Shown here: piece after piece, positions 2,681-21,036 of the stretch | Layout: each line of letters begins with the position of its first letter | Numbering within the stretch: the stretch's first letter is position 1 | Assembly (NCBI RefSeq): GCF_021227995.1 | Contig: NZ_CP089301.1 | Coordinates: forward strand, 4,340,001-4,404,000 | DNA: 64,000 nt | Origin: Novosphingobium kaempferiae | GTDB taxonomy: Bacteria > Pseudomonadota > Alphaproteobacteria > Sphingomonadales > Sphingomonadaceae | Direction of reading: 5' to 3' | Notes under the pieces: model-generated | The model's input: the letters and a program-made list of their open reading frames with translations, nothing else | Databases searched by the model: none | What the model was told of the DNA's origin: nothing | Made by a program: the position numbers and the translations under genes

Positions 2681-3637
2681 TCACTGCGAGGCCTTGGCCT
2701 TCACCGAGGCTTTCGGCCACCACGTCAGCGTCTGTTCGTCGTGCGCCGAGGTCCAGACCCCCGCCTTCGTCCAGCGCAAGGCGCCACTGCCCGCCGCCTT
2801 GCCGAAGCGGCCCTCGACCGTCATCGCCCTGGGGTCGATCACCGCGAAGACCTGATCGTCGGTGGTGCGCAGCCAGACCTTGCCCGCGCCGGTGTCGATG
2901 TCGCCCCACTTGAGATTGTCGCCCACCTTGATCCGGCCGGATACGGCATTGGTGGCGGGATCGATGCGCGCCACGGTGCCGTCGCCCTGTTCCTGCACCC
3001 AGACGCCGCCCTCGCCCGCCGCCAGGAAGCCGGGCTCCTTGCCGACCGGGATCTTCGCGGTGACGGTGTTCGTCGCGGTGTCGATGCGCTGGAGCGACTG
3101 CGCCGGAGCGCTCACCGCCCAGACCGCGCCGAAGCCATAGGTCAGATACCACGTACCCGGATCGACCGGGATCGAGGCCACGACCGAGTTGGTCGCCGGA
3201 TCGATGCGGGCGACGAGCCCCTTCTCATTATCGCTGGCGACCCAGACCGAGCCGTCACCCGCGACGACGTTGAGTTCGCCGCTGGAGGCGATGCCGCTCG
3301 GGATCGTCGCGATCAGCTTCGCCGTCTTCACGTCGATGCGCTTGACCGCCTTCTCCTCGCAGTCCGCCAACCATAGCGAGCCCGCCGCGATCGCCATCGC
3401 GCCGCAGGGACGCTTCATGGGCACTTCGGCGAGCTTGCCCCCCTTACTACCACTCTGGCGGGACCACTGCTCCACCCGGCCCTTGTTGGTGATCCACACG
3501 GTCTTGCCGTCCACCGCAAGGAAATCCGCGAAGCCGGGCACCTTGATGACCTCGGCCTCCTGAGCGCCTGCACTCGATGCGATCGCGGCCACGCCGATCG
3601 TGGTCGCCAGCAGGGCGAGAAGCTGGAACTTGCGCAT
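2681..3637 (-). CDS. Periplasmic YVTN/Vgb-like beta-propeller protein
   Basis: This 318-aa protein has a Sec signal peptide ending ASSAGAQ. The rest is repeating blades with the pattern GxVWVxxxxxxxVARIDPATNxVxxxIPVG, including ARIDPATNSVVASIPV, QRIDTATNTVTAKIPV and ARIDPATNAVSGRIKV, typical of streptogramin-lyase-like/YVTN propellers. ATG at 3637 directly precedes the signal peptide, so the upstream in-frame extension is excluded. It is the last gene of the minus-strand carboxylase operon, after allophanate hydrolase and a palindromic repeat. A lyase activity is unlikely without visible catalytic residues; a binding or sensing role in the periplasm is a guess. Confidence 0.75.
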   Translation of the reverse strand: MRKFQLLALLATTIGVAAIASSAGAQEAEVIKVPGFADFLAVDGKTVWITNKGRVEQWSRQSGSKGGKLAEVPMKRPCGAMAIAAGSLWLADCEEKAVKRIDVKTAKLIATIPSGIASSGELNVVAGDGSVWVASDNEKGLVARIDPATNSVVASIPVDPGTWYLTYGFGAVWAVSAPAQSLQRIDTATNTVTAKIPVGKEPGFLAAGEGGVWVQEQGDGTVARIDPATNAVSGRIKVGDNLKWGDIDTGAGKVWLRTTDDQVFAVIDPRAMTVEGRFGKAAGSGALRWTKAGVWTSAHDEQTLTWWPKASVKAKASQ

Positions 3638-8600: not shown

Positions 8601-9211
8601 CCGATGTAGCGTTCGAGGAAGACCCCGGCGTCGCCGAAATTGCTCTGCCCCTGACGCTTCACGGTGGCGAAACCATCGCGCAGCTGCGCCTCGTCGGTGC
8701 AGACGCGCATGCCGATGCCGCCGCCGCCGGCCGTCGCCTTGAGCATGACCGGGTAGCCGATCTTTGCAGCGGCGCTGACCGCCTCCTCCTCGTCGGTGAG
8801 CAGGTCCGTTCCCGGCGCCAGCGGCACGTCATGCGCGGCGGCGAGTGCGCGGGCGCTGTGCTTGAGGCCGAAGGTGCGGATGTTGTCCGTGGTCGGCCCG
8901 ACGAAGACGATCCCCTCCGCCGCACACGCCTCGGCGAACTCGACGTTCTCGGCCAGGAAGCCGTAGCCGGGATGGATCGCCCCTGCCCCCGTCTTCTTCG
9001 CCGCCGCGATGATCGCGGGGATGTTGAGATAGCTTTCGGAAGCCTTGGCGCCGCCGATGAACACGGCCTCGTCGGCTTCCGAAACGTGGTTGGAGCCCTC
9101 GTCCGCTTCGGAATAGACGGCGACGGACCTGAGGCCCATCGTCCGCAGCGTGCGGATGATGCGGGTGGCGATCGCGCCCCGGTTCGCGATCAGGACGGTG
9201 TCGAAGCTCAT
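5600..9211 (-). CDS. Biotin-dependent urea/guanidine carboxylase
   Basis: This 1203-aa multidomain enzyme has, in order: biotin carboxylase (residues ~1-445, ATP-grasp loop KATAGGGGIGMRV), an AHS2/KipA-like carboxyltransferase part (from ~450, FRVVSGGTATTVQDWPG), an AHS1/KipI-like part (from ~790, YRQQGDRNILVEYGP), the conserved region with YNPARTW and GMEGPGGYQLFGRT, and a C-terminal biotinyl domain with biotinyl-Lys1166 in EAMKME. It uses ATP and bicarbonate to carboxylate urea to allophanate or guanidine to carboxyguanidine. The two neighbouring CgdAB-type genes favour guanidine, but I cannot settle this by eye. The start at 9211 overlaps the upstream stop (ATGA). Confidence 0.93.
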   Translation of the reverse strand: MSFDTVLIANRGAIATRIIRTLRTMGLRSVAVYSEADEGSNHVSEADEAVFIGGAKASESYLNIPAIIAAAKKTGAGAIHPGYGFLAENVEFAEACAAEGIVFVGPTTDNIRTFGLKHSARALAAAHDVPLAPGTDLLTDEEEAVSAAAKIGYPVMLKATAGGGGIGMRVCTDEAQLRDGFATVKRQGQSNFGDAGVFLERYIGRARHIEVQLFGDGEGRVMALGERDCSLQRRNQKVVEEAPAPLLPESVRTALYAAAVRLGEAAKYRSAGTVEFLYDADRAEFFFLEMNTRLQVEHGVTEMVMGIDLVEWMIRGAAGDFAFLDAPAPTMTGHSVQMRLYAEDPSLDYRPTSGTLTALEFPEDIRVETWCSAGSTVSAWYDPMLAKLIVHAPSREEAVEAAQRAIDATRVDGIETNVRWLRDVVRTPAFTSGEVSTKVLDGVTYAARAFRVVSGGTATTVQDWPGRQNLWAVGVPPSGPMDDQSFRLGNRLLGNPEGTAGLEATVTGPTLAFVSDARICLTGADFGATLDGVAVERGVAIDVAAGQTLAMGRASTGGIRGYILFAGGLDIAPYLDSRATFELGQFGGHAARRLLAGDTIHLGVDPTDTAVPAVTLPAIGNEWTLRVLYGPHGAPDFFTPEDVDMVLGAEWKIHYNSNRTGVRLIGPKPRWARTDGGEAGLHPSNIHDNPYAIGAVDFTGDMPIILGPDGPSLGGFVCPFVVIAADRWKIGQLSPGDKLRFTPVTIEDAAAADAAQRDLVATGAALEASPVRSVETLTPILAEIPEGPGRPRAVYRQQGDRNILVEYGPIVLDIELRIRVHALMTELERLAAPGIVDIVPGIRSLQLHFDGTAMDQKAALAMLIAAEERLGDLEDFAIPSRVVHLPLSWRDPATIETIEKYMATVRDDAPWCPDNIEFIRRINGLPDQAAVENLIFEANYLVMGLGDVYLGAPVATPVDPRHRLVTTKYNPARTWTPPNVVGIGGAYMCIYGMEGPGGYQLFGRTVQVWNTYRQSPEGSGGAFTEGKPWLLRFFDQIRFYPVSAEELADWRREFPAGRRALKIEPSEFRLADYRAYLAENAAGIAEFEQRRKAAFDEERAEWERLGEFDHAADLAEADVPSEEAIVLPEGSDLVEAPYGGSVTRLLVAPGDTVEAGDRIAVIEAMKMECSVESPGSGTVEALYMREGQSLQPGAPMLALRKNA

Positions 9212-9843
9212 GCGGTGACGATCATCCGGACTGGAGTGGGGTTGAAGCCGTTGCAGGGGTTGTTGACCTGCGGGCAGTTGGACACGACGACGATCACGTC
9301 CATTTCCGCCCGCAGGTCCACAGTCAGGCCCGGCGCGGAAATACCGTCGACGATGCCCAGCGACCCGTCCGGCTCCACCGGTACGTTCATGAAGAAGTTG
9401 ATGTTCGAGACGATGTCCCGCTTGCCGCGCCCTTCGAGGAGGTTGGCCTCCAGGAAGTTCTCGACGCAGGCGTGCTCGGACTTCGTGTGATGACCGTAGC
9501 GCAGGGTATTGCTCTCGCACGAGCACGCGCCGCCGATGGTGTCGTGGTAGTCGACCGAAGTGGCGGCGATGGTCATCAGCGCGTTGCCCTCGTTGGAGAG
9601 CAGCTTCGTGCCTTCGCGCAGGAACAGGTTGCCCTGCGCCGCCACGGTGTCCTGCGCCGAATAGCGCTCGGCATCGTCGGCGGCGGAATAAAGCAGGAAG
9701 TCGACCGCCTGATTGCCTTCGAGATCGACGATGCGCAGCGTCTGCCCGGCCTTGACGTGATGCAGCCAGGGTGCGCGGGCGGGGACGACGACGTCGTGCA
9801 GGACGGTGCCGGTGAGGCCGGACATGTGGGGATCGGTGCTCAT
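9208..9843 (-). CDS. Urea amidolyase-associated protein 2 / carboxyguanidine deiminase subunit
   Basis: This 211-aa DUF1989 protein matches the family called urea amidolyase-associated protein 2. Conserved features seen are LRIVDLEGNQAVDFLLYSA, the Cys-rich HDTIGGACSCESNTLRYG, FFMNVP and AEMDVIVVVSNCPQ. Family members next to biotin carboxylases have been described as one subunit (CgdA/CgdB) of a deiminase that converts carboxyguanidine to allophanate and ammonia. That assignment is by family and context; I do not know which subunit letter applies. It overlaps the carboxylase start by 4 bp and follows UAAP1 by 17 bp, consistent with a stoichiometric complex. Confidence 0.85.
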   Translation of the reverse strand: MSTDPHMSGLTGTVLHDVVVPARAPWLHHVKAGQTLRIVDLEGNQAVDFLLYSAADDAERYSAQDTVAAQGNLFLREGTKLLSNEGNALMTIAATSVDYHDTIGGACSCESNTLRYGHHTKSEHACVENFLEANLLEGRGKRDIVSNINFFMNVPVEPDGSLGIVDGISAPGLTVDLRAEMDVIVVVSNCPQVNNPCNGFNPTPVRMIVTA

Positions 9844-9860: not shown

Positions 9861-10697
9861 TCAGCGGCGGAAGTAGTCTTCGACGTTCTCGAAGGCGCGC
9901 AGGCCCTCCGGCGTCGCGAGGCGGACGGGGTCGTCCTCGCCCGTCACCGGCCCGCGCCATGCCGAGGCGCGCAGCGGCGTCACCGTGTAGTCGGCACGCG
10001 GATCGAGGACGTGGGGGACGTTGGCGATCACCACGATCACGTCCATCTCGGCGCGCAAGATCACCGTGCGGCCGGGCGCGAACGGGCCGACCTCGGGCGT
10101 GATGGTGCCGTCCGCCTCGATCCGCGCGCCCTTGAACAGCGTCACGCAAGGATGAACGTCGCGGCGACCGAGGCCATGCTTCGCCGCACCCAGCAGGAAG
10201 CGGTCGCGGCCGCTAGGGAAGGCGCCGGAATTGCGGCCCTCGCCGTACTTCGCGAGGTTGGTCGCAGGATTGGAGGTGCCGCAGAAGGTATCGTGCGTGC
10301 CTGCATCGTCCGACACGATACTCATCATGACGCGGCCCATGTCCGACAGCAGCAGCTTGCCTTCGCCGAGATAGGCGTTCCACTGGACCTTCACCGTGTC
10401 CGCCACGTTGAGGCGCTCGGTCGGCATGTCGGCGTTGAAGATCAGGATCGAGGCGGCTGCATCGCCCTTCACGTCGATCAGCCGCAGCCGCGAGCCGCGC
10501 GTCAGGCGCCGCGTGGCGTAGCCGCCCGCCGCGATCGTCTCTTCCCAGACGTGATCGTCGGGGCTGACGCCTGCGGGCAGGTCGTCGGCCACCGGCGGCA
10601 GCACCGGCATGCTCTCCACCACGGTGCCGCCCTGCGCACGGGCATGGTCGCGGGCGGCCAAGGGATTAGACAGCGGATCGGCCAAGGCTTCGGTCAT
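9861..10697 (-). CDS. Urea amidolyase-associated protein 1 / carboxyguanidine deiminase subunit
   Basis: This 278-aa DUF1989 paralogue of the next gene corresponds to urea amidolyase-associated protein 1. It has LRLIDVKGDAAASILIFNA, HDTFCGTSNPATNLAKYG and AEMDVIVVIANVPH, aligning with the equivalent motifs of UAAP2, but lacks the CSCESN cysteine pair. The two probably form a heteromeric deiminase acting between the carboxylase and allophanate hydrolase. ATG at 10697 overlaps the regulator stop codon (ATGA), so the regulator and enzyme are co-translated from one message. Confidence 0.85.
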   Translation of the reverse strand: MTEALADPLSNPLAARDHARAQGGTVVESMPVLPPVADDLPAGVSPDDHVWEETIAAGGYATRRLTRGSRLRLIDVKGDAAASILIFNADMPTERLNVADTVKVQWNAYLGEGKLLLSDMGRVMMSIVSDDAGTHDTFCGTSNPATNLAKYGEGRNSGAFPSGRDRFLLGAAKHGLGRRDVHPCVTLFKGARIEADGTITPEVGPFAPGRTVILRAEMDVIVVIANVPHVLDPRADYTVTPLRASAWRGPVTGEDDPVRLATPEGLRAFENVEDYFRR

Positions 10698-11179
10698 GAA
10701 TGCGCTCCGATGTTCCTGAAGTCTCCGCCGTCCTGCTCGTAAAGCGGCGGCAGGAGAGCGGTGGTGGTGACGAGTTCGAGCTGCTGCACGCCCCGCACGC
10801 GGCGGATGGCGTCGCACAATTCCTTGAGCCGCACGGCGGGCCCCTGCACGAGCAGGACTTCGAGCGACTGGTCATCCTCCAGCACGACATGCTGAGAGGA
10901 GATCACTTCCTTGAGATACTGGCTCTGCGTCTGCGAGAGCAGGTGGCGCACCCGGCCCCGCTCGCTGCGGTAGACGAGGGTGATGGTCCCCGCGAGCATC
11001 TCTTCCGGGCGCATCAGCGATCCGTGCTCCGCCAGCGCGTGGCGGATCAGTTCGGCGATCAGCTGCGAACGGGACGGCAGTCCGCGTTCGGCCACCATCG
11101 TGTCGAGCTGTCTGAAGAGGTCTGCCGGGAGACTCATGCTGAGCCGTGCCAGGCCTGCGGATTCGGAGCCCATGCCCAT
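10694..11179 (-). CDS. CopG/NikR-like ribbon-helix-helix regulator 1
   Basis: This 161-aa protein has an N-terminal ribbon-helix-helix (LARLSMSLPADLFRQLDTM, then SRSQLIAELIRHAL) and a NikR-like ACT-type C-terminal domain. Aligned with E. coli NikR, the nickel ligands His76, His89 and Cys95 are replaced by Ser, Val and Ser; only the His87 equivalent (SSQHVV) remains. It probably no longer senses nickel. Start codons at 11179 or 11173 are possible, since the upstream GAAAAGAGA is a weak ribosome-binding site. It starts 7 bp after the ABC ATPase and just downstream of operator site A, suggesting autoregulation. A 171-aa paralogue lies 3 kb upstream. Confidence 0.88.
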   Translation of the reverse strand: MGMGSESAGLARLSMSLPADLFRQLDTMVAERGLPSRSQLIAELIRHALAEHGSLMRPEEMLAGTITLVYRSERGRVRHLLSQTQSQYLKEVISSQHVVLEDDQSLEVLLVQGPAVRLKELCDAIRRVRGVQQLELVTTTALLPPLYEQDGGDFRNIGAHS

Positions 11180-11186
11180 TCTCTTT

Positions 11187-11981
11187 TCAGTTATTACGAT
11201 TTACGTCAATCGTAATATTATCGAGTTCAACGGCGTTTTCTTCCGGCGTCTCGTCCACGCGCTTGCGCAGCGGCAGGTCGTAGACTGCGGTGGCACCGAA
11301 ACGGTGCGGCGCGTGCGGATCGTGGCGGCGCTTGTCGAGCGCGAGGACGCGGGTGCCGAGGCTGAACGCCTCGCGGATGTCGTGCGTCACCATCACGATC
11401 GTGAGACTGTAATCGCGCCACAGGCGGCGGATCAGCGCATGCATGTCGGCGCGGATGCCGGGGTCGAGCGCGCCGAACGGTTCGTCCAGCAGCAGCACGC
11501 GCGGCCGCTTCACAAGTGCCTGCGCGATAGCGAGGCGCTGCTGCATGCCGCCCGACATCTGCGCGGGATAAAGATCGAGGCTGTGGCCGAGGCCGACGGC
11601 GGTCAGCATCTCGGTCGCCTCCGCCTCGGCGGCGCGTTTCGCACCGCCGAACAGGCGGCCCATCAGCGGCGCCTTCTCACACTCCATGCCCAGGATCGTG
11701 TTGCGCAGCGCGGAGAGGTGCGGGAACACCGAATAGCGCTGGAACACGACGCCGCGATCCGGCCCGCATTCGGGCGTCAGCGGGGTGCCGTCCATCAGGA
11801 TCTGGCCCCGGCTCGGCCCCTCCTGCCCCAGTATCAGGCGCAGGAAGCTGCTCTTGCCTGCGCCCGAGGGACCGACGATCGAGACGAACGAGCCTTCCTC
11901 GATGTCGAGGTCCAGTTTCTCGATGATGATGCGGTCGCCGTACTCGACCCAGACGTCGCGGAAGCTGAGGAGCGTGCTCAA
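11187..11981 (-). CDS. ABC transporter ATP-binding protein (urea/guanidine-type importer)
   Basis: This 264-aa ATPase of the nitrate/taurine/sulfonate importer type has Walker A GPSGAGKSS, signature MSGGMQQRLAIAQAL, Walker B VLLLDEPFGALD and the H-loop MVTHD. It energises the permease encoded directly upstream. The start is TTG at 11981, overlapping the permease stop as TTGA; no ATG exists in the right place, and the upstream in-frame reading is not ABC-like. Its last codons overlap the operator-like palindrome at 11192-11217. With the permease and binding protein it forms the transporter known from urea-carboxylase regions. Confidence 0.9.
   Translation of the reverse strand: MSTLLSFRDVWVEYGDRIIIEKLDLDIEEGSFVSIVGPSGAGKSSFLRLILGQEGPSRGQILMDGTPLTPECGPDRGVVFQRYSVFPHLSALRNTILGMECEKAPLMGRLFGGAKRAAEAEATEMLTAVGLGHSLDLYPAQMSGGMQQRLAIAQALVKRPRVLLLDEPFGALDPGIRADMHALIRRLWRDYSLTIVMVTHDIREAFSLGTRVLALDKRRHDPHAPHRFGATAVYDLPLRKRVDETPEENAVELDNITIDVNRNN
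11192..11217 (-). promoter_or_regulatory. Operator-like dyad, site A (TATTAC-N14-GTAATA)
   Basis: Perfect 10-bp inverted repeat, TATTACGATT and AATCGTAATA with a 6-bp spacer, at the 3' end of the ABC ATPase gene and 12 bp before the start of CopG regulator 1. On the minus strand TTGACG, a -35-like hexamer, lies inside the dyad. It matches site D at 22 of 26 positions. Confidence 0.7.
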
Positions 11982-12793
11982 TGGCTTTCTCCGTGTGCCC
12001 AGGGGAAGAGCCGGTGGCTGAGGAAGGTCAGCGCCACGTCCATGAGGATCGCCAGCAACGCGATCCACGCGACGTAAGGCAGGATCACGTCCATCGACAG
12101 GTAGCGGCGGACGAGGAAGATGCGGTAGCCGAGGCCCACGTCCGAAGCGATCGCCTCGGCCGAGATCAGGAACACCCATGCCGGACCGAGCGAGAGCCGG
12201 ATCGCCTGCAGCAGGCGCGGCATGGCCTGCGGCAGCGCGACGCGGATCATCACCTGCCAGCTGCTTGCACCCAAGGTCTGCGCCTTGATGATCTGTTCAC
12301 GCGGCAGCGCGGCGACGTGGGCGGCGATGTCGCGGATCATGACCGGGGCGATGCCGATGACGATAAGCGCGACCTTGGCCGTCTCGCCCAGGCCCAGCGC
12401 GATGAACAGGATCGGCAGCAGCGCGATCGGCGGGATGACCGCGATGCCGGTGACGAGCGGACCGAACGTGGCGCGCACCGGCGGCAAGGCGCCCAGCGAA
12501 AGGCCCACCACCAGCGCCATCAGCGTCGATATGCCGAGCCCGATGCCAAGGCGCTGGAGGCTCGCCAGCGTATCGGCCCAGAACACCAGTTGCCCGGTCA
12601 GCTGGTCCGGCACGAACAGCAGCGCCGACATGCTCTCGGCCATCGCGCCGGGCAGCGGCAGGATCTTGTCTGCGGGGTTCACCGCATGGCGGCTCGCGGC
12701 CATGACGATGTAGACCAGCAGCAGCAGCAGGATCGGCGCGGCTCCGAGGAGCACCCGCCCCCCTCGCCCGACCTGACGATTCACCAAGCGCAT
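11978..12793 (-). CDS. ABC transporter permease (urea/guanidine-type importer)
   Basis: This 271-aa inner-membrane protein of the BPD_transp_1 (SsuC/TauC-like) family has about six predicted membrane segments, including LLGAAPILLLLLVYIVMA. Its ATPase-coupling EAA loop reads KAQTLGASSWQVMIRVALPQ. A GAGGT sequence sits about 10 nt before ATG 12793. It lies between the binding protein (132-bp gap containing a REP-like palindrome) and the ATPase (4-bp overlap). The substrate is inferred from the operon to be urea, guanidine or a related small cation or amide. Confidence 0.9.
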   Translation of the reverse strand: MRLVNRQVGRGGRVLLGAAPILLLLLVYIVMAASRHAVNPADKILPLPGAMAESMSALLFVPDQLTGQLVFWADTLASLQRLGIGLGISTLMALVVGLSLGALPPVRATFGPLVTGIAVIPPIALLPILFIALGLGETAKVALIVIGIAPVMIRDIAAHVAALPREQIIKAQTLGASSWQVMIRVALPQAMPRLLQAIRLSLGPAWVFLISAEAIASDVGLGYRIFLVRRYLSMDVILPYVAWIALLAILMDVALTFLSHRLFPWAHGESH

Positions 12794-12834
12794 TTACGTG
12801 ACCTCACCTGAGTGATGTTCTGCTTTTTACACTT

Positions 12835-12910
12835 CGTCATTGCGAGCAAAGCGAAGCAATCCAGCGTCGTGACAACCGCACTGGGTTGCTTCGCTGCGCT
12901 CGCAATGACG
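12835..12910. repeat. REP-like palindrome, copy 2
   Basis: Inverted repeat CGTCATTGCGAGCAAAGCG ... TTGCTTCGCTGCGCTCGCAA within the ABC operon, between the binding-protein stop and the permease start. In the transcript it would form a stable hairpin that could protect the binding-protein part of the message. Confidence 0.9.
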
Positions 12911-12925
12911 GCAATGGATGCCCGC

Positions 12926-14002
12926 TCAGAGCTTCCCGTCGGCGGCCATCTTCATGTAGCTGTCGTCGAACCGCAGCGTGACATGCTGCGCGTCGCCGAG
13001 CGTCTTGCCGCCGGGGAACGACATGCCCACCGCGTCGGCCGAGCTGGCGCCCTTGAACAGCCCCTTGGAGAAGCTGAAGTCGCGCACGCGGGTCATCGTG
13101 GTGACGAGCGCGGGCGCGTCGGTCGCGGCGACGGCGGCCTTGGGGTCGGCATAGAGGAAGGTGGTGGTGAGCTGGCTGTCGAACGCCTCGGGCGTCGCGC
13201 CCGCCAGCTTCGCCATCGCGGCGCGGGCGGCCTTGCCCTCGGCATCCTGCCGGGTCATCAGCGCGGTCGTCTCGTACCAGATGCCCGCAAGCGCCTTGCC
13301 GAGGTTCGGGTTGGCCTTGAGCGTGGCGGTATCGACGCAGAGCAGGTCGAGGATCTCGCCCGGGATATCGGCGGAGGAGAACACCATCTTCGCGCCCGGC
13401 TGCGCCTTCATGGCGGTCAGCTGCGGGTTCCACGCCACCGCGACCTTTACGTCGGGGCTGGCGAAGGCGCCGACGATGTCGGCATCGGCGGTGTTGATCG
13501 TCTTCACGTCGGTCGGCGCGAGGCCCGCCAGCGTCATGCCGCGCGCGAGCAGGTAGTGGGAAACCGAAAGCTCGACCAGGTTGACCTGCTGGCCCTTGAT
13601 GGCGCGCATGTCGCCCGCACCCTTCATCAGGATGCCGTCGTTGCCGTTGGAATAGTCGCCGACGATGATCGCGCTGGTGTCCTTGCCACCCGCCGCCGGA
13701 ATCGTCAGCGCGTCCATGTTCGCCACGGTCACGCCGTCCAGCTTGCCCGCAGTGTACTGGTTGACCGATTCGACGTAGTCGTTGACCTGCACCACGTTGA
13801 TCTTGATGCCGTACTTGTCGGCCCACTTCTTCACGATGCCGGCCTGCTGGGCATAGGGCCAGGGCATCCAGCCTGCGTAGATGGACCAACCGATGTTGAA
13901 TTCGGTACGCTTGGCGTCAGGCGCCGGCTGGGAGCAGGATGCGGTGAAAAGCAGCCCCGCAACCATTGCGACCTTGGCTGCCTTGCGGATCGATGCGATC
14001 AT
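12926..14002 (-). CDS. ABC transporter substrate-binding lipoprotein (urea carboxylase region type)
   Basis: This 358-aa protein has a lipoprotein signal (LLFTASCSQ, lipobox cysteine at about residue 24) and a periplasmic-binding fold related to nitrate/taurine-type SBPs (FNIGWSIYAGWMPWPYAQ, VNQYTAGKLDGVTVANMDAL). This class is known as the binding protein of urea carboxylase regions. ATG 14002 is chosen: AAAGGGGA lies about 10 nt upstream and the signal peptide begins there, while the ATG at 14056 would add 18 unneeded residues. Operator site B lies between this gene and CopG regulator 2, so its expression is probably controlled there. It likely delivers guanidine or urea. Confidence 0.88.
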   Translation of the reverse strand: MIASIRKAAKVAMVAGLLFTASCSQPAPDAKRTEFNIGWSIYAGWMPWPYAQQAGIVKKWADKYGIKINVVQVNDYVESVNQYTAGKLDGVTVANMDALTIPAAGGKDTSAIIVGDYSNGNDGILMKGAGDMRAIKGQQVNLVELSVSHYLLARGMTLAGLAPTDVKTINTADADIVGAFASPDVKVAVAWNPQLTAMKAQPGAKMVFSSADIPGEILDLLCVDTATLKANPNLGKALAGIWYETTALMTRQDAEGKAARAAMAKLAGATPEAFDSQLTTTFLYADPKAAVAATDAPALVTTMTRVRDFSFSKGLFKGASSADAVGMSFPGGKTLGDAQHVTLRFDDSYMKMAADGKL

Positions 14003-14063
14003 TGAGTCGGTCCCCTTTCGCAACGCAACATTGCTGCGATTGGAAGGGTTGTCCATCGAAAAA

Positions 14064-14089
14064 TATTACGTGAAAGAGATTCTGTAATA
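14064..14089 (-). promoter_or_regulatory. Operator-like dyad, site B (TATTAC-N14-GTAATA)
   Basis: TATTACG at 14064-14070 and GTAATA at 14084-14089, with the same 14-bp inner spacing as site A, in the 106-bp gap before the ABC binding-protein gene. The CGTAATA half faces the gene. No guanidine (ykkC) riboswitch pattern is seen in this leader. Confidence 0.65.
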
Positions 14090-14108
14090 CTTTCGGTCGA
14101 CAATCCGT

Positions 14109-14624
14109 TCAGGCCGGGACTTCGCCGCTCGCCCGCTGGCCGCGCACACGGGACACATCGCCGCCGTCGGCGCGAATCTCGTCCTGCTCGTGCAGCTGCG
14201 GCAGCAGCGCGGTGGTGGTGACGAGCTGGAGCTGGTGCACCCCGCGAATGGCGCGCAGCCCGTCGCACAGTTCCTTGAGCCGCGCCGCCGGGCCCTGCAC
14301 CAGCAGCACTTCGAGCGACTGGTCGTCCTCGAGGAAGACGTGCTGCGAAGAAATCACTTCCTTCAGGTACTCCGCCTGGCTCTGCGCCAGCTGGTGCCGC
14401 ACGCGGCCCTTGTCGCCCCGGTAGACCAGCGTGATCGTGCCCGCGAGCATCTCCTCGGGACGGGTCAGCGCCTCATGCTCGGCAAGCGCGTGGCGGATCA
14501 GTTCGGCGATGAGCTGCGAGCGCGACGGCAGGCCGCGTTCTTCCACCATGGCGTCCAGCTGGCGGAAGAGTTCGGCCGGAAGGCTCATGCTGAGCCGGGC
14601 AAGGCTGGCGGGATCGGTGCTCAA
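14109..14624 (-). CDS. CopG/NikR-like ribbon-helix-helix regulator 2
   Basis: This 171-aa close paralogue of regulator 1 has the same RHH (LARLSMSLPAELFRQLDAM) and the same NikR-like C-terminal domain (KEVISSQHVFLEDDQSLEVL). NikR His76, His89 and Cys95 are again replaced (Ala, Phe, Ser). It has an extra charged C-terminal tail (RADGGDVSRVRGQRASGEVP). A TTG start at 14624 has GAGAGGGG 6 nt upstream and matches the paralogue's N-terminus; ATG 14588 would cut the RHH strand. It is divergent from the metallo-hydrolase genes, with operator site C in the shared region, and lies upstream of the ABC genes it probably controls. Confidence 0.85.
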   Translation of the reverse strand: MSTDPASLARLSMSLPAELFRQLDAMVEERGLPSRSQLIAELIRHALAEHEALTRPEEMLAGTITLVYRGDKGRVRHQLAQSQAEYLKEVISSQHVFLEDDQSLEVLLVQGPAARLKELCDGLRAIRGVHQLQLVTTTALLPQLHEQDEIRADGGDVSRVRGQRASGEVPA

Positions 14625-14795
14625 GCTGCGCCCCTCTCGATCATCGTAAAGTCCTCGAAACGTTCGCCGACCTGCCCACGTCGCACAGGGCCGGACCACC
14701 ACCCCTATACCAAGCGGGCCCAGGATGACAGCCGATCCCTTGGCGATCCCTGTAATAACCTTGTCCGGATCGGTCATACCGCCATGCCACGAAAA

Positions 14796-14821
14796 TATTA
14801 ACATTGCCACATTCCGTAATA
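14796..14821 (+). promoter_or_regulatory. Operator-like dyad, site C (TATTAA-N14-GTAATA)
   Basis: One mismatch from the dyad consensus, with the same 14-bp inner spacing. It lies in the divergent region between CopG regulator 2 (minus strand) and the metallo-hydrolase pair (plus strand). CGTAATA faces the hydrolase gene, and TTGCCA occupies the place where sites A and D have TTGACG. Confidence 0.65.
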
Positions 14822-14836
14822 TCCATATCCTGTCGC

Positions 14837-15982
14837 GTGATCGAGCCGTCCTCCGCTGCTCGACGCCATGTGTGGGGGCATATCCTGGCGCAGAATCCGA
14901 CCCGCAACGCCGGTACTTCCGGCGGTTTCTCCGGCAGTTCGCAAGCGGCCACCGGCCGTGCCTATCCGAACGGCAACCCCGCGCTGGGTTACAACCCGCC
15001 GGGCGTGCGCAACACCGACAGCGCCGTGCCGCTGCATCCCAAGGCGCCCGTCCGGCACGACTATGCGTGCGAGGGCCCGGCGGCGGGCAGCCTCTCGTTC
15101 CGCTGGACCTACGGCTCCAACGTGGCCGCCAAGAACCGCGATCCGCGCGTGCAGGTGGTGCAGTACAACGAGGACACTTTCGTCCTGCGCCAGAACGTGT
15201 GCGTCCACTGGGAAGCGCCATTCACCTACCTGCTGTTCGGCAACAGGGGCGCGCTGCTGATCGACACCGGCGCGACGCCGAACGCCGCGCACTATCCCCT
15301 GCGCGAGACGGTGGATGCCATCATCACCCGCTGGGCGCAGGCCCGCGGACGCAGCAAGGTGCCGCTGACAGTTGCGCTCACTTCGGGCGAGGACGTGGCG
15401 CAGAACCAGGGCCTCGTGCAGTTCGCCGACCGTCCCGACACGAAGATCGTGCCAAAGCCGCTGGCGGTGATGCAGCAGTTCTACGGGCTCTCCAACTGGC
15501 CCACCGGCACCGGGCGGATCGACCTTGGCGACCGCGTGATCGAGGTAATCCCGACGCCCGGCACGCACAAGGACGGCGTGACGTTCTACGATCCGTACTG
15601 CGATTTCCTGTTCACCGGCGACCTGCTGTTTCCCGGCAAGATCAACATCGGCAACGACCGCGATTTCGTCGCCTCGCTGGAACGGCTGAAGGCCTTCGCG
15701 GCGGCGAAGCCGGTGAAGTGGCTGCTCGGCGGGCACATCGAGATGATGTTCGTTCCCGGCAAGTACTACCCGCGCTTCACCAACTTCAAACCCTACGAGC
15801 GCGTGCTGGAGATGACCCCGAACCTCATCGACGAGGCGCTGCAATATGCGCGCGAGGTGCAGGGCAAGGACATGATGCTGATCCGCCCGGACTTCGTGCT
15901 GTTCAACGGCGTCAGCCCGGACCAGCGCACGCCGGTCTGGCCCGAGGGCGTGCCCAACATCAACCCGCCCCGCCCGTTCTGA
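14837..15982 (+). CDS. Metallo-beta-lactamase-fold protein lacking the HxHxDH motif
   Basis: This ~381-aa protein is paralogous to the next gene over the whole fold (VQYNEDTFVLRQNVCVHWEAP matches its VHWYNEHTAILRQNKAYSYEAP region). Where the paralogue has SHLHADHYAATNQ, this one has TSGEDVAQNQ, so four metal ligands are missing. The later motifs survive: TPGTHKDG, LFTGDLLFPG and LLGGHIEM. It is probably non-catalytic or uses an altered metal site. The start is uncertain: GTG 14837 is provisional, TTG 14804 falls inside operator C, and GTG 14870 is also possible. No convincing signal peptide or ribosome-binding site is seen. Confidence 0.75.
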   Translation: MIEPSSAARRHVWGHILAQNPTRNAGTSGGFSGSSQAATGRAYPNGNPALGYNPPGVRNTDSAVPLHPKAPVRHDYACEGPAAGSLSFRWTYGSNVAAKNRDPRVQVVQYNEDTFVLRQNVCVHWEAPFTYLLFGNRGALLIDTGATPNAAHYPLRETVDAIITRWAQARGRSKVPLTVALTSGEDVAQNQGLVQFADRPDTKIVPKPLAVMQQFYGLSNWPTGTGRIDLGDRVIEVIPTPGTHKDGVTFYDPYCDFLFTGDLLFPGKINIGNDRDFVASLERLKAFAAAKPVKWLLGGHIEMMFVPGKYYPRFTNFKPYERVLEMTPNLIDEALQYAREVQGKDMMLIRPDFVLFNGVSPDQRTPVWPEGVPNINPPRPF

Positions 15983-16010
15983 CGCCGAATGACGCTTTCA
16001 CCCCATCGTT

Positions 16011-16085
16011 CGTCATTGCGAGCGTAGCGAAGCAATCCAGCGTTGCGGGCCGACCGTGGATTGCTTCGCTACGCTCGCAATGATG
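16011..16085. repeat. REP-like palindrome, copy 3
   Basis: CGTCATTGCGAGCGTAGCG ... CGCTACGCTCGCAATGATG inverted repeat between the two metallo-hydrolase genes. An in-frame upstream extension of the second hydrolase reads through this element and is an artefact. Confidence 0.9.
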
Positions 16086-16130
16086 AACAGTAGGGCCAAC
16101 ACACTGATTCAAGGACAAGGAAAACCGCCC

Positions 16131-17144
16131 GTGGATCGACGCTCTTTCCTGACCTACAACGCGGCCGTCGCCGCCATCCCCCTGACGGGCGCGGCGCTGA
16201 CCGGGCTTTCCGAAGCCGCGAGCGCGGCCACCCGCCCACCGCCGATCGACTTCAAGGCCAACCTGCCCGCCAAGGGCGCCTTCCCCGATCGCTGGATCTG
16301 CGGGTCGTCGTCAGCCATGGACAACACCGACCCGCCGGTGCAGGTCCACTGGTACAACGAGCACACCGCGATCCTGCGCCAGAACAAGGCGTACTCCTAC
16401 GAAGCGCCGTTCGCGCCCCTCTACTTCGGCAACGATCGCGTGCTGCTGCTCGACGAAGGCTTCGTGCAGCTGCGCAACGACTGGGATCTGCGCGGCGTCG
16501 TCGACCAGTGCATCGACGACTGGTGCAGGCGCAACGGCCGCGATCCCGCGAGCCTCGAACTGCTGGTGGCGTTCAGCCACCTCCACGCAGACCACTACGC
16601 CGCGACCAACCAGTTCGCGGACCGCCCCAACACCCGCTACATGGGCCTCACGCACGAGGAGATGGTCGGCTTCTGGGGCATGACCAACTTCCCGGAAGAG
16701 CGCGTGACGCTCGACCTCGGCGGGCGGGACATCCTGATCTGGGGATCGCCGGGCCATGTCGTCTCGGAGTTCGCCTACTACGACAGCTACACGCAGATCC
16801 TCTATACCGGCGACATGTTCTATCGCGGCCGCTGCTACATCAGCTTCTGGGAGCCGTGGTTCGAGAGCATGAAGCGCCTCATCGACTTCTGCGACACCCA
16901 CCCGGTCACGCACGTCATGGGCTGCCATGTCGAGATCAGCAAGGCGGGCGAGGATTACGCCTACGGCATGACGTACCAGCCCGACGAGGCGCCCGTGGAG
17001 ATGACCGTGCAGCAACTGCGCGAGGCCTATGCCCACGCGCAGAAGATCACCGAACCGGGCATCTACTTCACCGGCACCGTGTTCCTCTGCAACCAGACGC
17101 GCGGGACGACGACGATCGACCGGAACCCCTACCGCTACGAGTGA
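16131..17144 (+). CDS. Tat-exported metallo-beta-lactamase-fold hydrolase
   Basis: This 337-aa protein starts with a twin-arginine signal (VDRRSFLTYNAAVAAIPLTG), so GTG 16131 with upstream AAGGACAAGGA is preferred over ATGs inside the REP-like repeat. The binuclear metal motif is complete: His150, His152, Asp154 and His155 in SHLHADHYA, His209 in SPGHV, Asp228 in YTGDMF and His266 in GCHVEI. It is probably a periplasmic zinc hydrolase of unknown substrate. It follows the motif-less paralogue after a 148-bp gap with a repeat, and both would be controlled from operator site C. A hairpin follows the gene. Confidence 0.85.
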   Translation: MDRRSFLTYNAAVAAIPLTGAALTGLSEAASAATRPPPIDFKANLPAKGAFPDRWICGSSSAMDNTDPPVQVHWYNEHTAILRQNKAYSYEAPFAPLYFGNDRVLLLDEGFVQLRNDWDLRGVVDQCIDDWCRRNGRDPASLELLVAFSHLHADHYAATNQFADRPNTRYMGLTHEEMVGFWGMTNFPEERVTLDLGGRDILIWGSPGHVVSEFAYYDSYTQILYTGDMFYRGRCYISFWEPWFESMKRLIDFCDTHPVTHVMGCHVEISKAGEDYAYGMTYQPDEAPVEMTVQQLREAYAHAQKITEPGIYFTGTVFLCNQTRGTTTIDRNPYRYE

Positions 17145-17158
17145 TCACCCGGCGAATC

Positions 17159-17190
17159 GGCGAAGGACCATTCCGGCACGATCCTTCGCC
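17159..17190 (+). terminator. Hairpin after the metallo-hydrolase
   Basis: GGCGAAGGA and TCCTTCGCC form a 9-bp stem with a 14-nt loop, followed by ATTTCC. There is no good U-tract, so it is a weak intrinsic terminator candidate 15 bp after the stop. Confidence 0.45.
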
Positions 17191-17307
17191 ATTTCCGCTG
17201 CATCACGCGCACTGCGCCGACAACGAATCGTGTTACCCTGCGGCATCGGCAATGGCGGTCTTCCGACATTCGCGACACACCATGACCAAAAGAAGTCGCG
17301 CCGATAT

Positions 17308-17333
17308 TAATACGCTTGACGATAATCGTAATA
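17308..17333 (+). promoter_or_regulatory. Operator-like dyad, site D (TAATAC-N14-GTAATA)
   Basis: Identical to site A at 22 of 26 positions, including TTGACG at the same internal offset (17316-17321), which could be a -35 box. It lies 97 bp upstream of the desaturase-like gene in the 285-bp gap, with CGTAATA facing that gene. Nothing else notable was seen in the gap. Confidence 0.7.
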
Positions 17334-17429
17334 TCCATACCGTGTGCATATCGCCGGTGAGAGCGAGGAAAACGGGAGAGAGAATCTGCAACAGCCGGCC
17401 GGACAACCGGACCGGATGGGGGGTTTTCG

Positions 17430-18395
17430 ATGGGACGACTACCAGTTTCCGAAACGGTTCTTTCAGGCAGCAGCCAGGTGGCCAGCTACGCCGATGTCGT
17501 TACCCCGACTGCTGACACGCTGAAGCAGAGGCTCTTCAACCTTATCCCGCCCGCCTTCGTCGCGGTGGTCGTCGCGTTCTGGGCCTATGCGCCCAAGTCG
17601 CTCGCCGAGAACGGCTGGACGATCATCGTCACGTCCGCGCTCATCACCGTCATCGTGCTGGGGCTTGAGTTCGTTCACGAACGCCACGCCGGATGGCGCA
17701 TGAACTGGCGCGAATTCTTCACCGACCTGTTCTACGTGGTGCTGAGCGCGACCGCGATCTCGTGGGTTTCGACAACGCTGGCGGAAGATCCGCTGCTGGC
17801 CGCCAAGAAGTCGCTGGGCATCTCGACCGAATGGGCGATGCAGATGCCCTGGCTGCTGCAGGTCGCGCTGGTGGTCTTCGTGATCGAGTTCGGCCAGTAC
17901 TGGATGCATCGCCTGATGCACAATTCCACGCCGTTCTGGCTGACCCACGCGCCGCATCACCACATCACCCAGCTCAACGCCGCCAAGGGCGCGGTGGGCA
18001 ACCCGATCGAGCTGTTCCTCATCAGCCTGAGCGTCGTCGCGCTGTTCGACCTGTCGCTGACCGCCAAGCTCTGCGCGTTCAACGTGCTCGGCGTGGTGTC
18101 CACATTCGCCCATGCCAACGTGCGCTCGGACCCGCCGAAGTTCTACTCGTTCTTCTTCACGACGATCCGCCACCACAGCCTGCACCACTCGACCGACTAC
18201 GAGAGCACGCGCTGCAACTACGGCAATTCGCTGATCCTGCTTGACCGCGTCTTCGGCACCTATCGCGACGGAGAGGGCGTGATCGTCGGGCAGGACGATC
18301 TCAAGCGCCTGTCCATTTGGGAGCAGTTCATGTTCCCATTCCAGCCCGTGATCGACCGGATGCGGGCAAAGCGCGCGATGGCCGCAGCCAACTGA
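17430..18395 (+). CDS. Sterol desaturase/fatty-acid hydroxylase family membrane protein
   Basis: This 321-aa integral membrane protein has four to five hydrophobic segments and the three histidine clusters of the di-iron fatty-acid hydroxylase superfamily: HRLMH, HAPHHH and HSLHH. Members hydroxylate or desaturate lipids, sterols or carotenoids. The N-terminal segments (LIPPAFVAVVVAFWAYAP, IIVTSALITVIVLGLEF) precede the catalytic region. GGGGGG lies about 8 nt before ATG 17430. It sits between operator site D and a TBDR gene transcribed the same way 190 bp later, so it may act on the imported compound or on a membrane lipid. Substrate unknown. Confidence 0.85.
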   Translation: MGRLPVSETVLSGSSQVASYADVVTPTADTLKQRLFNLIPPAFVAVVVAFWAYAPKSLAENGWTIIVTSALITVIVLGLEFVHERHAGWRMNWREFFTDLFYVVLSATAISWVSTTLAEDPLLAAKKSLGISTEWAMQMPWLLQVALVVFVIEFGQYWMHRLMHNSTPFWLTHAPHHHITQLNAAKGAVGNPIELFLISLSVVALFDLSLTAKLCAFNVLGVVSTFAHANVRSDPPKFYSFFFTTIRHHSLHHSTDYESTRCNYGNSLILLDRVFGTYRDGEGVIVGQDDLKRLSIWEQFMFPFQPVIDRMRAKRAMAAAN

Positions 18396-18585
18396 AAGTT
18401 CTGAGTACCAAGGGAGCGAACGCCTCGACCGGTTCCTGAGACCGCCGAGAGCAGCGTGCGCCGGCACAGACATCCGCAAGCGATGGCCGGCGCAGGAATG
18501 AGGATCTTCAAAACAAGCACCGCTCGGGGCCGACAAGGAGCAGGCCCCGGGATCGGGGAACTGTAACCGGAACATGGGGAAGCAC

Positions 18586-21036
18586 ATGACATATCGCGAG
18601 AAACTGAGAGTGGGTCTGCTGTCGGCAACCATCTTCACGGGCACGACGCTCGCGATGCCGGCACTGGCGCAGGAGGCCGCCGCCGTCTCCGAGGACGGCG
18701 ACGCCATCGTCGTCACCGGCACCCGCCGCGCGACCACGATCATGGACACGCCGATCAACATCTCGGCCCTCGGCGCCGAGGAACTCAAGCGCCAGCGCGT
18801 CGACGACGTGCGCGACCTCGCGGACTTCACCCCAGGCCTGACCATCTCCGACACCGGCCCGCGCTCGACCGGCACGATCATCATGCGCGGCCTCAGCGCC
18901 TCCGACACCGATTCCAACGGCGGCACTTACGATGACGCGCTGGGCATCTACCTCGGCGAAGTCCCGCTCTACTACGACTTCAAGCTGCTCGACATCGCGC
19001 GCGTGGAGACGCTGCTCGGCCCGCAGGGCACGCTCTACGGCCTCGGCACGCTGGCCGGTGCGATCCGCTACATCCCGAACCGCCCGAACGTGGATGCGTT
19101 CGAGAGCGAAGCGCACGGCCGCCTCTACACCAAGAGCCACGCGACCGATCTCGGCTACCAGGTCGACGGGATGATAAACATCCCGCTGGTGCGCGATCAC
19201 ATCGCCTTCCGTTCGTCCACCGGCTATTACTACGACCCCGGCTTCATCGACGCGCCGCTGCTCATCAACGAGCCGGGCGTGTCCAACCCGCAGCCCAACG
19301 GCACCAGCCGTCCGACCGGCGACGCCTACTACGCCAATCTGCACAAGGCGGAGGATCTCAACTTCGAGAAGACCTTCACCACGCGCAACCAGCTGCTGCT
19401 GCAGACCACCGAAGACCTCAAGGTGATCTTCACTTACGCCTTCCAGCGTACCAAAAGCGACGGCGCGCAGTCCAACAGCGCGGGTATCCTCGGCACCGGC
19501 AGGTACGAGAGCGCGACCCGCTACAAGGAGCCGGTCAACCGCCGCGCCCACCTCGCCTCGATGGAGATCGACGCGAACATCGCGGACATCGCCGACCTCG
19601 TCTCTACGACCGCCTACACCAATGTCCGGTCGCGCAGCCGGGGCGACAATACCGACCTCCTGCTCGACCTCGACTACGACTACGAGCTGTTCCCGAACTT
19701 CTCGAGCTGGAACGAGACCGACAACCGCCGCAAGCAGTTCAACCAGGAAATCCGCCTCGTCTCCACGCATGGCGGGCCGTTCAGCTGGGTTCTCGGCGGC
19801 TTCTACAACGAGCAGAAGCTGCACAGCGACTACGCCGAACATACGCCCGGCCTGAGCGCTTTCGATCCCGACTACTACGGCGATCCCGCGGCCAACCCCG
19901 AAGACCTCGAATACGTCAGCTACGTGAAGTCCAAGATCACCGAGAAGGCGATCTTCGGCGAAGGCACCTTCCGCGTGACGCCGGAATGGCAGGTGACCGG
20001 CGGCGCGCGCTACTTCAAGTATACCTCGCAGATCGAGGGCGCGCTCGTCCTGCCGCTGCTGGGCGATCCGCTCAGCCCCTACGACCTCGATCCCGCAGGT
20101 GGTCGCGCGAAGCAGGACGGCTGGGTGTGGAAGTTCAACACCTCCTACAACATCACGCCCGACGTCATGATCTACGGCACCTACAGCAAGGGCTATCGCA
20201 TCGGCGGCCCGAACCGCGTCGCTCCCTGCCCGAATCCGGTGCCGGCAGACCAGCAGAACGCCTGCGCCCTGCCGAACGAAGTCCAGTTCGGCCCGGACAA
20301 GACCAAGAACGCTGAAATCGGCATCCGCACACAGTTGTTTGACCGCAAGCTGACCTTCAACTTCAACGTCTACCACATCAAGTGGGAAGGCATTCAGGTG
20401 GACTCGGCGACGTTCTACGGCGTGACCGGCATCACCGTGAACGGCGGTTCGGCGAAGTCGCAGGGCTTCGAAACCTCGTTCCAGTTCAAGCCGGTGCCCA
20501 ACCTCTCGATCCAGGGCACGTATTCGTACACCGACGCCAAGCTGACCGAGGACGTTGACGGCATCGTCACGATCCGCACGATCCCGAACTACTACGGTCC
20601 TTACCGCTCGCGTGCGAACCCGAACCTGCCGCCCAAGTTCACGCAGCTCGACGCGCTCGACGGCGATCGCCTGCCGGGCTCGGCCAAGAACTCAGGCAGC
20701 CTCGGCGCGACCTACACGATGCCGATGACCGACGGCGACCTGTCGTTCAACTGGACGGCGACCTATCGCGGCAACGTGGTGTCCCGTCTCGGCTGGGATC
20801 GCGCCTATGGCGACAAGATCCCCGGCTACGTGATGCACCGCGCGACGATCGCCTACGAGAACGACAAGTTCGGCGTGAGCCTCTTCGCCAACAACATCTT
20901 CGACAAGTATGCCGTCGTCTCGGTCGGTCAGGACCGCTCGCGCATCGGCGTCAACGATGGCGTCGCGGTGCGCTACTACCGCCAGACGGTGGCGACGCCG
21001 CGCGTCGTCGGCGTCGAAGCCCGCATCAAGTACTGA
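18586..21036 (+). CDS. TonB-dependent receptor 1
   Basis: This ~816-aa outer-membrane receptor has a signal peptide (TLAMPALAQ), a TonB-box-like DAIVVTGTRR, a plug domain with VETLLGPQGTLYGLGTLAGAI, a beta-barrel and a terminal aromatic strand ending RIKY. ATG 18586 is chosen over 18574 because GGGGAAG is then well spaced. Receptors of this type import substrates too large or scarce for porins, such as siderophores, cofactors and oligosaccharides. The only clue to the substrate is co-regulation through site D with the guanidine/urea operon. The gene ends with a strong hairpin. Confidence 0.93.
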   Translation: MTYREKLRVGLLSATIFTGTTLAMPALAQEAAAVSEDGDAIVVTGTRRATTIMDTPINISALGAEELKRQRVDDVRDLADFTPGLTISDTGPRSTGTIIMRGLSASDTDSNGGTYDDALGIYLGEVPLYYDFKLLDIARVETLLGPQGTLYGLGTLAGAIRYIPNRPNVDAFESEAHGRLYTKSHATDLGYQVDGMINIPLVRDHIAFRSSTGYYYDPGFIDAPLLINEPGVSNPQPNGTSRPTGDAYYANLHKAEDLNFEKTFTTRNQLLLQTTEDLKVIFTYAFQRTKSDGAQSNSAGILGTGRYESATRYKEPVNRRAHLASMEIDANIADIADLVSTTAYTNVRSRSRGDNTDLLLDLDYDYELFPNFSSWNETDNRRKQFNQEIRLVSTHGGPFSWVLGGFYNEQKLHSDYAEHTPGLSAFDPDYYGDPAANPEDLEYVSYVKSKITEKAIFGEGTFRVTPEWQVTGGARYFKYTSQIEGALVLPLLGDPLSPYDLDPAGGRAKQDGWVWKFNTSYNITPDVMIYGTYSKGYRIGGPNRVAPCPNPVPADQQNACALPNEVQFGPDKTKNAEIGIRTQLFDRKLTFNFNVYHIKWEGIQVDSATFYGVTGITVNGGSAKSQGFETSFQFKPVPNLSIQGTYSYTDAKLTEDVDGIVTIRTIPNYYGPYRSRANPNLPPKFTQLDALDGDRLPGSAKNSGSLGATYTMPMTDGDLSFNWTATYRGNVVSRLGWDRAYGDKIPGYVMHRATIAYENDKFGVSLFANNIFDKYAVVSVGQDRSRIGVNDGVAVRYYRQTVATPRVVGVEARIKY

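What the first reader, a model, noticed from the sequence alone, without database searches (positions are those of the whole stretch)
11192..17333. Four-site operator regulon TATTAC-N14-GTAATA linking a carboxylase operon to a metallo-hydrolase pair and a TBDR
Four dyads with identical 14-bp inner spacing lie at 11192-11217 (A), 14064-14089 (B), 14796-14821 (C) and 17308-17333 (D). Each precedes a different transcription unit: CopG regulator 1 onward, the ABC binding protein, the MBL-fold pair, and the desaturase-like gene plus TBDR. The CGTAATA half is always nearest the gene it would control. A and D match at 22 of 26 positions, spacer included, with TTGACG at the same internal offset. This suggests one regulon under the two adjacent RHH proteins and ties guanidine/urea carboxylation to functions not normally associated with it.
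Basis: partly seen in the sequence, partly recalled or inferred. Interest (0 to 1): 0.78.

Follow-up and report, generated by a model that had tools for sequence, protein, structure and literature searches.

The report
Protein switch for bacterial guanidine genes
In this bacterium the genes for using guanidine as food sit behind a conserved DNA tag beside relatives of the nickel sensor NikR that have lost most of their nickel site, which makes those proteins good candidates for a guanidine-sensing protein switch, a kind of sensor not yet known.

Summary
The four dyads are real. The 5.7-Mb genome holds five TATTAC-N14-GTAATA sites with at most one mismatch: these four and one before a second hydroxylase paralog. 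In 80 sphingomonad loci 228 of 230 such sites lie upstream of cluster genes or their paralogs. The carboxylase has the published guanidine-carboxylase Asp (K. lactis 1330), so this is a guanidine operon. The two "CopG" proteins are NikR-family paralogs that lost three of four nickel ligands, as did 103 of 103 sphingomonad sequences. In 147 genomes of the order, NikR_C proteins and full-length carboxylases occur in the same 10; guanidine-I riboswitches reach the cut-off in none. Elsewhere in the class, guanidine-type carboxylases mostly carry that riboswitch. Two further lineages keep the operator beside the regulator gene; one also has a guanidine-II riboswitch. At the hydroxylase, TonB-receptor and MBL promoters the operator covers the -35 box, with -10 exactly 16 bp on, implying repression. 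I propose a NikR-derived repressor released by guanidine or a guanidino compound. Protein binding and ligand are inferred, not shown. [quoted passage not shown]

The parts
11192..11217 (-). Operator A, before NikR-like gene 1, inside the 3' end of the ATPase gene; TTGACG at 11209-11204
   Evidence: class conserved in relatives
14064..14089 (-). Operator B, before the transporter binding-protein gene
   Evidence: site before this gene in 78 of 79 loci
14796..14821 (+). Operator C, before the MBL pair and divergent to NikR-like gene 2
   Evidence: 32 of 44 loci with MBL1
14804..14831 (+). Predicted promoter of the MBL pair: TTGCCA, 16 bp, TATCCT; -35 lies in operator C
   Evidence: 30 of 32 relatives keep TAnnnT at 16 bp
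17308..17333 (+). Operator D, before the hydroxylase and TonB receptor
17316..17343 (+). Predicted promoter: TTGACG, 16 bp, TACCGT; -35 lies in operator D
   Evidence: sequence; TAnnnT at 16 bp in 44 of 51 hydroxylase and 33 of 34 TonB-receptor sites of relatives
10694..11179 (-). NikR-like regulator 1 (RHH_1 + NikR_C, three of four nickel ligands lost)
14109..14624 (-). NikR-like regulator 2 (start codon uncertain; 75% identical to regulator 1)
12926..14002 (-). ABC transporter binding protein, TIGR03427 'ABC_peri_uca'
11978..12793 (-). ABC permease
11187..11981 (-). ABC ATPase (start approximate)
9861..10703 (-). UAAP1, DUF1989, carboxyguanidine deiminase subunit homolog (start approximate)
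9208..9804 (-). UAAP2, second carboxyguanidine deiminase subunit homolog (start approximate)
5600..9211 (-). Guanidine-type carboxylase (TIGR02712; Asp at K. lactis 1330 and 1584; start approximate)
3834..5603 (-). Allophanate hydrolase (start approximate)
14870..15982 (+). MBL1, MBL-fold protein without the HxHxDH motif (start inferred)
16131..17144 (+). MBL2, MBL-fold protein with HLHADH and an N-terminal signal-like segment (start inferred)
17430..18395 (+). Fatty-acid-hydroxylase superfamily oxygenase (PF04116)
18574..21036 (+). TonB-dependent receptor

Best explanation
The sites are operators of a guanidine-assimilation regulon controlled by NikR-family ribbon-helix-helix repressors that have lost the His3Cys nickel site. 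The protein would bind TATTAC-N14-GTAATA, a NikR-type operator (same length and spacing as GTGTTAC-N13/14-GTAACAC of delta-proteobacterial NikR). At the hydroxylase/TonB-receptor and MBL promoters the operator covers the -35 box and the spacer, so a bound tetramer should block RNA polymerase; sites beside the regulator genes imply autoregulation. Shown by sequence: the regulon and its conservation, the promoter overlap, the loss of three nickel ligands, the guanidine type of the carboxylase. Inferred: that the NikR-like proteins bind these sites, that they repress, and that guanidine or a guanidino compound releases them. The last point would invert NikR logic, in which nickel promotes DNA binding.
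For: Regulon. Regulator identity and lost ligands. Guanidine type: 78 of 78 readable sphingomonad carboxylases are Asp/Asp. Co-occurrence: the same 10 of 147 order genomes have NikR_C proteins and full-length carboxylases, with a NikR_C gene about 1.5-1.6 kb upstream of each of the 11 copies (places). In the class, 17 Asp-type copies: 13 with a guanidine-I riboswitch 1.5-4.5 kb upstream, 1 with it on another contig, 3 with a nearby NikR_C gene and no guanidine-I; 3 Asn-type copies have neither nearby. Outgroups: G381 has the operator between the divergent regulator and transporter genes, and a guanidine-II riboswitch in the same operon; G046 has GTGTTAC-N14-GTAACAC before both regulator genes. 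Promoter overlap.
Against: No binding, expression or ligand data. Nickel increases DNA binding by NikR (PMC9860126), so induction needs inverted allostery. One ligand His is kept in 103 of 103 and G381 keeps two, so some metal role is not excluded. G381's regulator passes two NCBIfam NikR cut-offs. Transporter-class sites (73) lack the internal TTG in 72 and a -10 at 16 bp in all; regulator-class sites (48) have TTGAC but no -10 at 13-19 bp, so occlusion is not explained there. Hydroxylase and receptor sites are missing in many loci with such genes (40 of 61, 36 of 72). The 80 loci and the order genomes overlap, so these tests are not fully independent (contig lengths).
Confidence: 0.68

Rival explanations
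1. The NikR-like proteins still sense a metal (through the kept His and new acidic or Ser residues), and the regulon is metal control of a nickel-free nitrogen route.
For: NikR fold; one His kept in 103 of 103, two in G381; TonB receptors often import metal chelates (recalled).
Against: Three of four ligands lost in 103 of 103 while 8 NikRs from other alphaproteobacteria keep all four; strict pairing with the guanidine-type carboxylase; guanidine-II riboswitch in the same operon in G381.
Confidence: 0.12
2. The regulators sense nitrogen status or a later intermediate (carboxyguanidine, allophanate, ammonium, an amino acid), not guanidine; the ACT-like C-terminal fold (recalled) would allow an amino-acid-type ligand.
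For: The operon is a nitrogen-acquisition operon; no ligand evidence either way.
Against: In relatives outside the order guanidine-type operons mostly sit under a guanidine-I riboswitch, so the role being filled is guanidine sensing.
Confidence: 0.15
3. Another transcription factor binds the dyads, and the NikR-like genes are mere targets.
For: No binding data.
Against: NikR-type spacing, adjacency of site and NikR-like gene in three lineages, and a matched change (R-S-S strand with TATTAC, R-G-S with TGTTAC); only these two NikR_C proteins are in the genome. The matched change is a single event.
Confidence: 0.05
4. Chance AT-rich repeats.
For: At two mismatches the genome shows only noise.
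Against: Shuffles expect 0.00 in the window; 230 sites in relatives against 0-10 for seven controls.
Confidence: 0.01

Closest known systems
NikR nickel-responsive regulators (PDB 2bj1, 1q5v, 6mrj)
   Same: RHH_1 + NikR_C domains, fold match, operator length and spacing
   Different: Three of four nickel ligands replaced; target genes are guanidine assimilation; below all five matched NCBIfam NikR cut-offs
Guanidine carboxylase operons under guanidine-I/II riboswitches (Raoultella, Vreelandella, Pseudomonas)
   Same: ABC transporter, CgdA/B homologs, guanidine carboxylase, allophanate hydrolase (PMC12186494 section 6; PMC12508155 passages)
   Different: No known riboswitch at gathering score in the window or in 24 of 80 relatives tested; a DNA operator and NikR-like genes instead; extra hydroxylase, MBL pair, TonB receptor
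MgdH/MgdL methylguanidine demethylation genes of Vreelandella
   Same: An oxygenase co-regulated with guanidine carboxylase (PMC12508155 passages)
   Different: MgdH is a 2-oxoglutarate dioxygenase; here a PF04116 oxygenase of unknown substrate, so the parallel is a conjecture

Membership tests
NikR (family by descent) | Ribbon-helix-helix plus NikR_C domain | tested here: met
   Pfam above cut-off for both proteins
NikR (nickel-responsive regulator) | Four nickel ligands, His3Cys | tested here: not met
   One of four kept in 103 of 103
NikR (nickel-responsive regulator) | Score above NCBIfam NikR cut-offs | tested here: not met
   Both proteins below all five matched models
NikR (nickel-responsive regulator) | Inverted-repeat operator with N13/14 spacing | tested here: met
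   TATTAC-N14-GTAATA; GTGTTAC-N14-GTAACAC in G046
NikR (nickel-responsive regulator) | Nickel-dependent DNA binding | not testable with these tools
   Needs purified protein
Guanidine carboxylase pathway | Asp at K. lactis 1330 and Asp at 1584 in the carboxylase | tested here: met
   Alignment to 5i8i; rule from PMC11410670 passage
Guanidine carboxylase pathway | Two DUF1989 deiminase subunits and allophanate hydrolase | tested here: met
   TIGR03425, TIGR03424, TIGR02713
Guanidine riboswitch-controlled operon | Guanidine riboswitch upstream | tested here: not met
   No Rfam family at gathering score in the window; guanidine-I over cut-off in 0 of 147 order genomes
Urea carboxylase | Asn at K. 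lactis 1330 | tested here: not met
   Asp in the window

The most novel reading that the evidence does not exclude
This is the first guanidine-sensing transcription factor: a NikR fold whose metal-cation site was remade into a guanidinium site with inverted allostery. It takes the place of guanidine riboswitches in sphingomonads (in G381 it works beside one), and it also commands a pathway (TonB receptor, active/inactive MBL pair, membrane hydroxylases) that takes up N-substituted guanidines and oxidatively frees guanidine for carboxylation.
Probability: 0.4. Interest if true: 0.88.

Novelty: new variant of a known kind. Interest (0 to 1): 0.74.

Why it matters
[quoted passage not shown] This regulon gives a concrete candidate with operators, promoters and outgroups, so the question becomes directly testable. 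It would show how a metal sensor can be recruited for an organic cation. Its co-regulated hydroxylases, MBL pair and TonB receptor may point to natural sources of guanidine, which the same review calls an open question.

Tried and rejected
Rejected: (1) generic CopG regulators: NikR_C is present. (2) Urea carboxylase: Asp1330. (3) Two-mismatch genome sites as further members: 14 places in all against 33 for the control pattern; those seen mostly lie inside long mechanical reading frames (output partly cut). The palindromic one at genome 1668163 lies at a TetR-like frame, recognised by eye only, and was set aside. (4) TTGACG as part of operator recognition: absent at all 73 transporter-class sites. 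(5) Strict either/or of riboswitch and NikR-like gene: G381 has no guanidine-I but has a guanidine-II riboswitch. Guanidine-II to IV were not searched over the class genomes.

Led nowhere: the MBL2 model (mean pLDDT 47.8) was too poor for a fold search. No solved structure matched the hydroxylase at E 1 or the MBL2 profile at E 0.1; MBL1 had only E 0.016-0.048 matches. The regulator model is moderate (mean pLDDT 65.7). In 17 riboswitch or outgroup genomes only distant hydroxylase homologs were found (34% identity or less, 11 of 17).

Results against or limiting: the hydroxylase is in 9 of 10 carboxylase genomes of the order, is missing at E 1e-30 from G046, and is in two genomes without the carboxylase. 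MBL2 rings in 8 of 10 and in two others; only 5 genomes have a hit at 80% identity or more. Sites per gene: transporter 78 of 79 loci, hydroxylase 40 of 61, TonB receptor 36 of 72, MBL1 32 of 44, regulator 1 20 of 22, regulator 2 48 of 79, UAAP1 49 of 80; unrelated paralogs and gene order affect these. Co-occurrence p-values ignore shared ancestry and are not used. At least five order genomes have contig lengths equal to those of loci in the 80-locus set (G018/L036, G027/L025, G101/L022, G124/L027, G134/L053), so the two tests overlap. Three order genomes have sub-threshold guanidine-I matches, none of them carboxylase genomes.

Literature searches for a protein regulator of guanidine genes or a NikR/urea-carboxylase link found none among the listed titles; one search had 16 papers of which 10 were listed, one search had 845 of which 10 were listed. 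The library holds open PMC papers only.
Full report
OBSERVATION. The four dyads are at the stated coordinates: two exact, two with one mismatch; shuffles expect 0.00. In the whole 5,698,134-base genome five sites have at most one mismatch, against one for the reversed control pattern. Four are the reported ones; the fifth (3865451) lies just upstream of a second hydroxylase of the same superfamily, 40% identical to the window's. At two mismatches there is only noise: 14 places in all against 33. In the relative G018 all four sites at up to one mismatch lie in or beside the same cluster (places compared). So the refutation 'hundreds of equal sites without gene-start bias' does not come true.

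COMPARATIVE TEST. I fetched loci around homologs of the second regulator from one genome per species (215 places encode a relative, the best 80 were kept, all sphingomonads or close kin by title) and searched them with window proteins and the pattern. There are 230 sites at up to one mismatch in 1,576,250 bases; seven control patterns gave 1, 0, 0, 1, 1, 10 and 0. 79 of 80 loci have at least one site. 228 of 230 lie between 40 nt inside and 600 nt upstream of a cluster gene or its paralog; 78 of 79 loci with the transporter binding-protein gene have a site before it. 150 sites are exact, and in the other 80 the mismatch falls only on the symmetric positions 3/24 and 6/21, as expected of a dyad-binding protein and not of chance.

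WHAT THE GENES ARE. The 'urea carboxylase' (TIGR02712) has Asp at K. lactis position 1330, where the K. lactis urea amidolyase has Asn, and the conserved Asp1584. By the rule used in PMC11410670 (passage read) it is a guanidine carboxylase. In the 80 loci 78 carboxylases were readable at both positions and all 78 are Asp/Asp. UAAP1, UAAP2, allophanate hydrolase and the TIGR03427 binding protein complete the known guanidine carboxylase pathway. The two 'CopG' proteins carry RHH_1 and NikR_C, align end to end with P. horikoshii NikR (E 2.1e-25), and the model of the second matches NikR structures first, but both fall below all five NCBIfam NikR models that they match. They are the only NikR_C proteins found in the genome.

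LOST NICKEL SITE. NikR binds nickel with three His and one Cys (PMC9860126, passages read). In 103 of 103 NikR-like sequences from the window and the 80 loci, three of these positions are replaced (His to Ala, Val, Ser, Thr, Gly, Gln or Leu; His to Phe or Val; Cys to Ser) and one His is kept; 8 of 8 other alphaproteobacterial NikR_C proteins (L126-L133) keep all four. A ninth, L136, is degenerate. G046 proteins look like the sphingomonad ones; G381 keeps two His. In a tree of 30 chosen sequences the guanidine-associated proteins form one clade (98/96) that groups with P. horikoshii NikR (100/99), apart from the alphaproteobacterial NikRs; long branches make this placement provisional.

REGULATOR AND GUANIDINE CARBOXYLASE TRAVEL TOGETHER. 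In 147 genomes drawn from the order, NikR_C proteins are in 10 and full-length carboxylases in 10, the same 10; each of the 11 carboxylase copies has a NikR_C gene about 1.5-1.6 kb upstream (places in the same calls). Guanidine-I riboswitches over the cut-off: 0 of 147 (3 sub-threshold). In 289 genomes of the class there are 20 carboxylase copies in 18 genomes. Three are Asn type (urea), with neither a guanidine-I riboswitch nor a NikR_C gene nearby. Seventeen are Asp type: 13 have a guanidine-I riboswitch 1.5-4.5 kb upstream, one (G364) has it on another contig, and three (G000, G018, G381) have no guanidine-I but a NikR_C gene within about 9 kb. Three riboswitch genomes (G179, G286, G366) have NikR_C proteins on other contigs; these keep all nickel ligands. 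At gathering score no guanidine riboswitch of any Rfam class was found in the window, in 24 of 80 sphingomonad loci or in the two G046 loci.

TWO OUTGROUP LINEAGES. In G381, outside the order, the NikR-like gene (42% identical) and the transporter gene diverge around TATTACGATTTCCAGCGATCGTACTA, one mismatch. The same operon has a guanidine-II riboswitch just before cgdA (L137:15530-15579). This ties the NikR-like gene to a guanidine-sensing cluster and also shows that both kinds of control can coexist. In G046, from another family of the order, both guanidine operons have GTGTTAC-N14-GTAACAC about 40 nt before the matched part of the NikR-like gene, the consensus reported for delta-proteobacterial NikR (PMC545781, passages and Table 4 read). 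Its recognition strand reads R-G-S where 103 of 103 TATTAC-lineage proteins and G381 read R-S-S (that these alternate residues contact DNA is recalled). This is one matched change, suggestive only.

PROMOTER ANATOMY. With sites turned toward their genes, hydroxylase (44 of 51), TonB-receptor (33 of 34) and MBL (30 of 32) sites are followed by TAnnnT exactly 16 bp after the hexamer at operator positions 9-14, which begins with TTG in 45, 34 and 32 of them; from 13 to 20 bp the only other hit is one MBL site at 18 (some sites count in more than one class). An independent scan names the site-C promoter (14804-14831), though one such match is what shuffles also give. So at C and D the operator covers -35 and spacer, the layout of a repressor. 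Transporter sites (73) have no TTGAC; regulator sites (48) have TTGAC in all but no -10 from 13 to 19 bp, so their mechanism is open. In site A that stretch is also coding sequence.

MECHANISM. My best reading: without ligand the NikR-like tetramer binds the operators and blocks transcription; guanidine or a guanidino compound releases it. Shown by sequence: operator family, promoter overlap, regulator identity, loss of the nickel site, guanidine pathway. Inferred: binding, repression, ligand, inverted allostery.

ACCESSORY GENES. MBL1 lacks the HxHxDH motif in 34 of 34 orthologs examined and MBL2 keeps it in 33 of 34: a conserved inactive/active pair. The hydroxylase is in 9 of 10 carboxylase genomes of the order and in two others. 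By analogy with MgdH, an oxygenase that feeds guanidine carboxylase from methylguanidine (PMC12508155, passages read), I suggest that these genes free guanidine from larger compounds. This is conjecture.

NOVELTY. [quoted passage not shown] My searches listed no report of a NikR-type or other protein regulator of guanidine genes, in a library that lacks most subscription papers and holds no bioRxiv preprints.

Noticed in passing
window 14870-15982 and 16131-17144: Conserved MBL pair: MBL1 lacks HxHxDH in 34 of 34 orthologs examined, MBL2 keeps it in 33 of 34.
   Followed up: yes
genome G000 3865451-3865476 (L003): Fifth operator, outside the window, just before a second PF04116-type hydroxylase; some relatives show the same pairing.
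   Followed up: yes
L137:15530-15579 (genome G381): Guanidine-II riboswitch inside an operon that also has the NikR-like gene and operator: RNA and protein control side by side.
   Followed up: partly
L137:12594-14836 (genome G381): Creatininase-family and type III glutamine synthetase genes sit between the transporter and cgdA of this guanidine operon.
   Followed up: no
window 2684-3637 (-): YVTN-type beta-propeller protein next to the allophanate hydrolase gene; beta-propeller-type genes recur near the cluster in relatives (an ORF cluster of 53 loci, two members checked). Orthology not tested.
   Followed up: partly
window about 12836-12911 and 16010-16085: Short REP-like inverted repeats (CATTGCGAGC..AAGCAATCCAGCG) between genes, seen by eye.
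   Followed up: no
genome G000 1668163-1668188 (L010): Palindrome TGTTACTATGAGTGACGATAGTAACA at a TetR-like frame, recognised by eye only; probably another regulator's operator.
   Followed up: no
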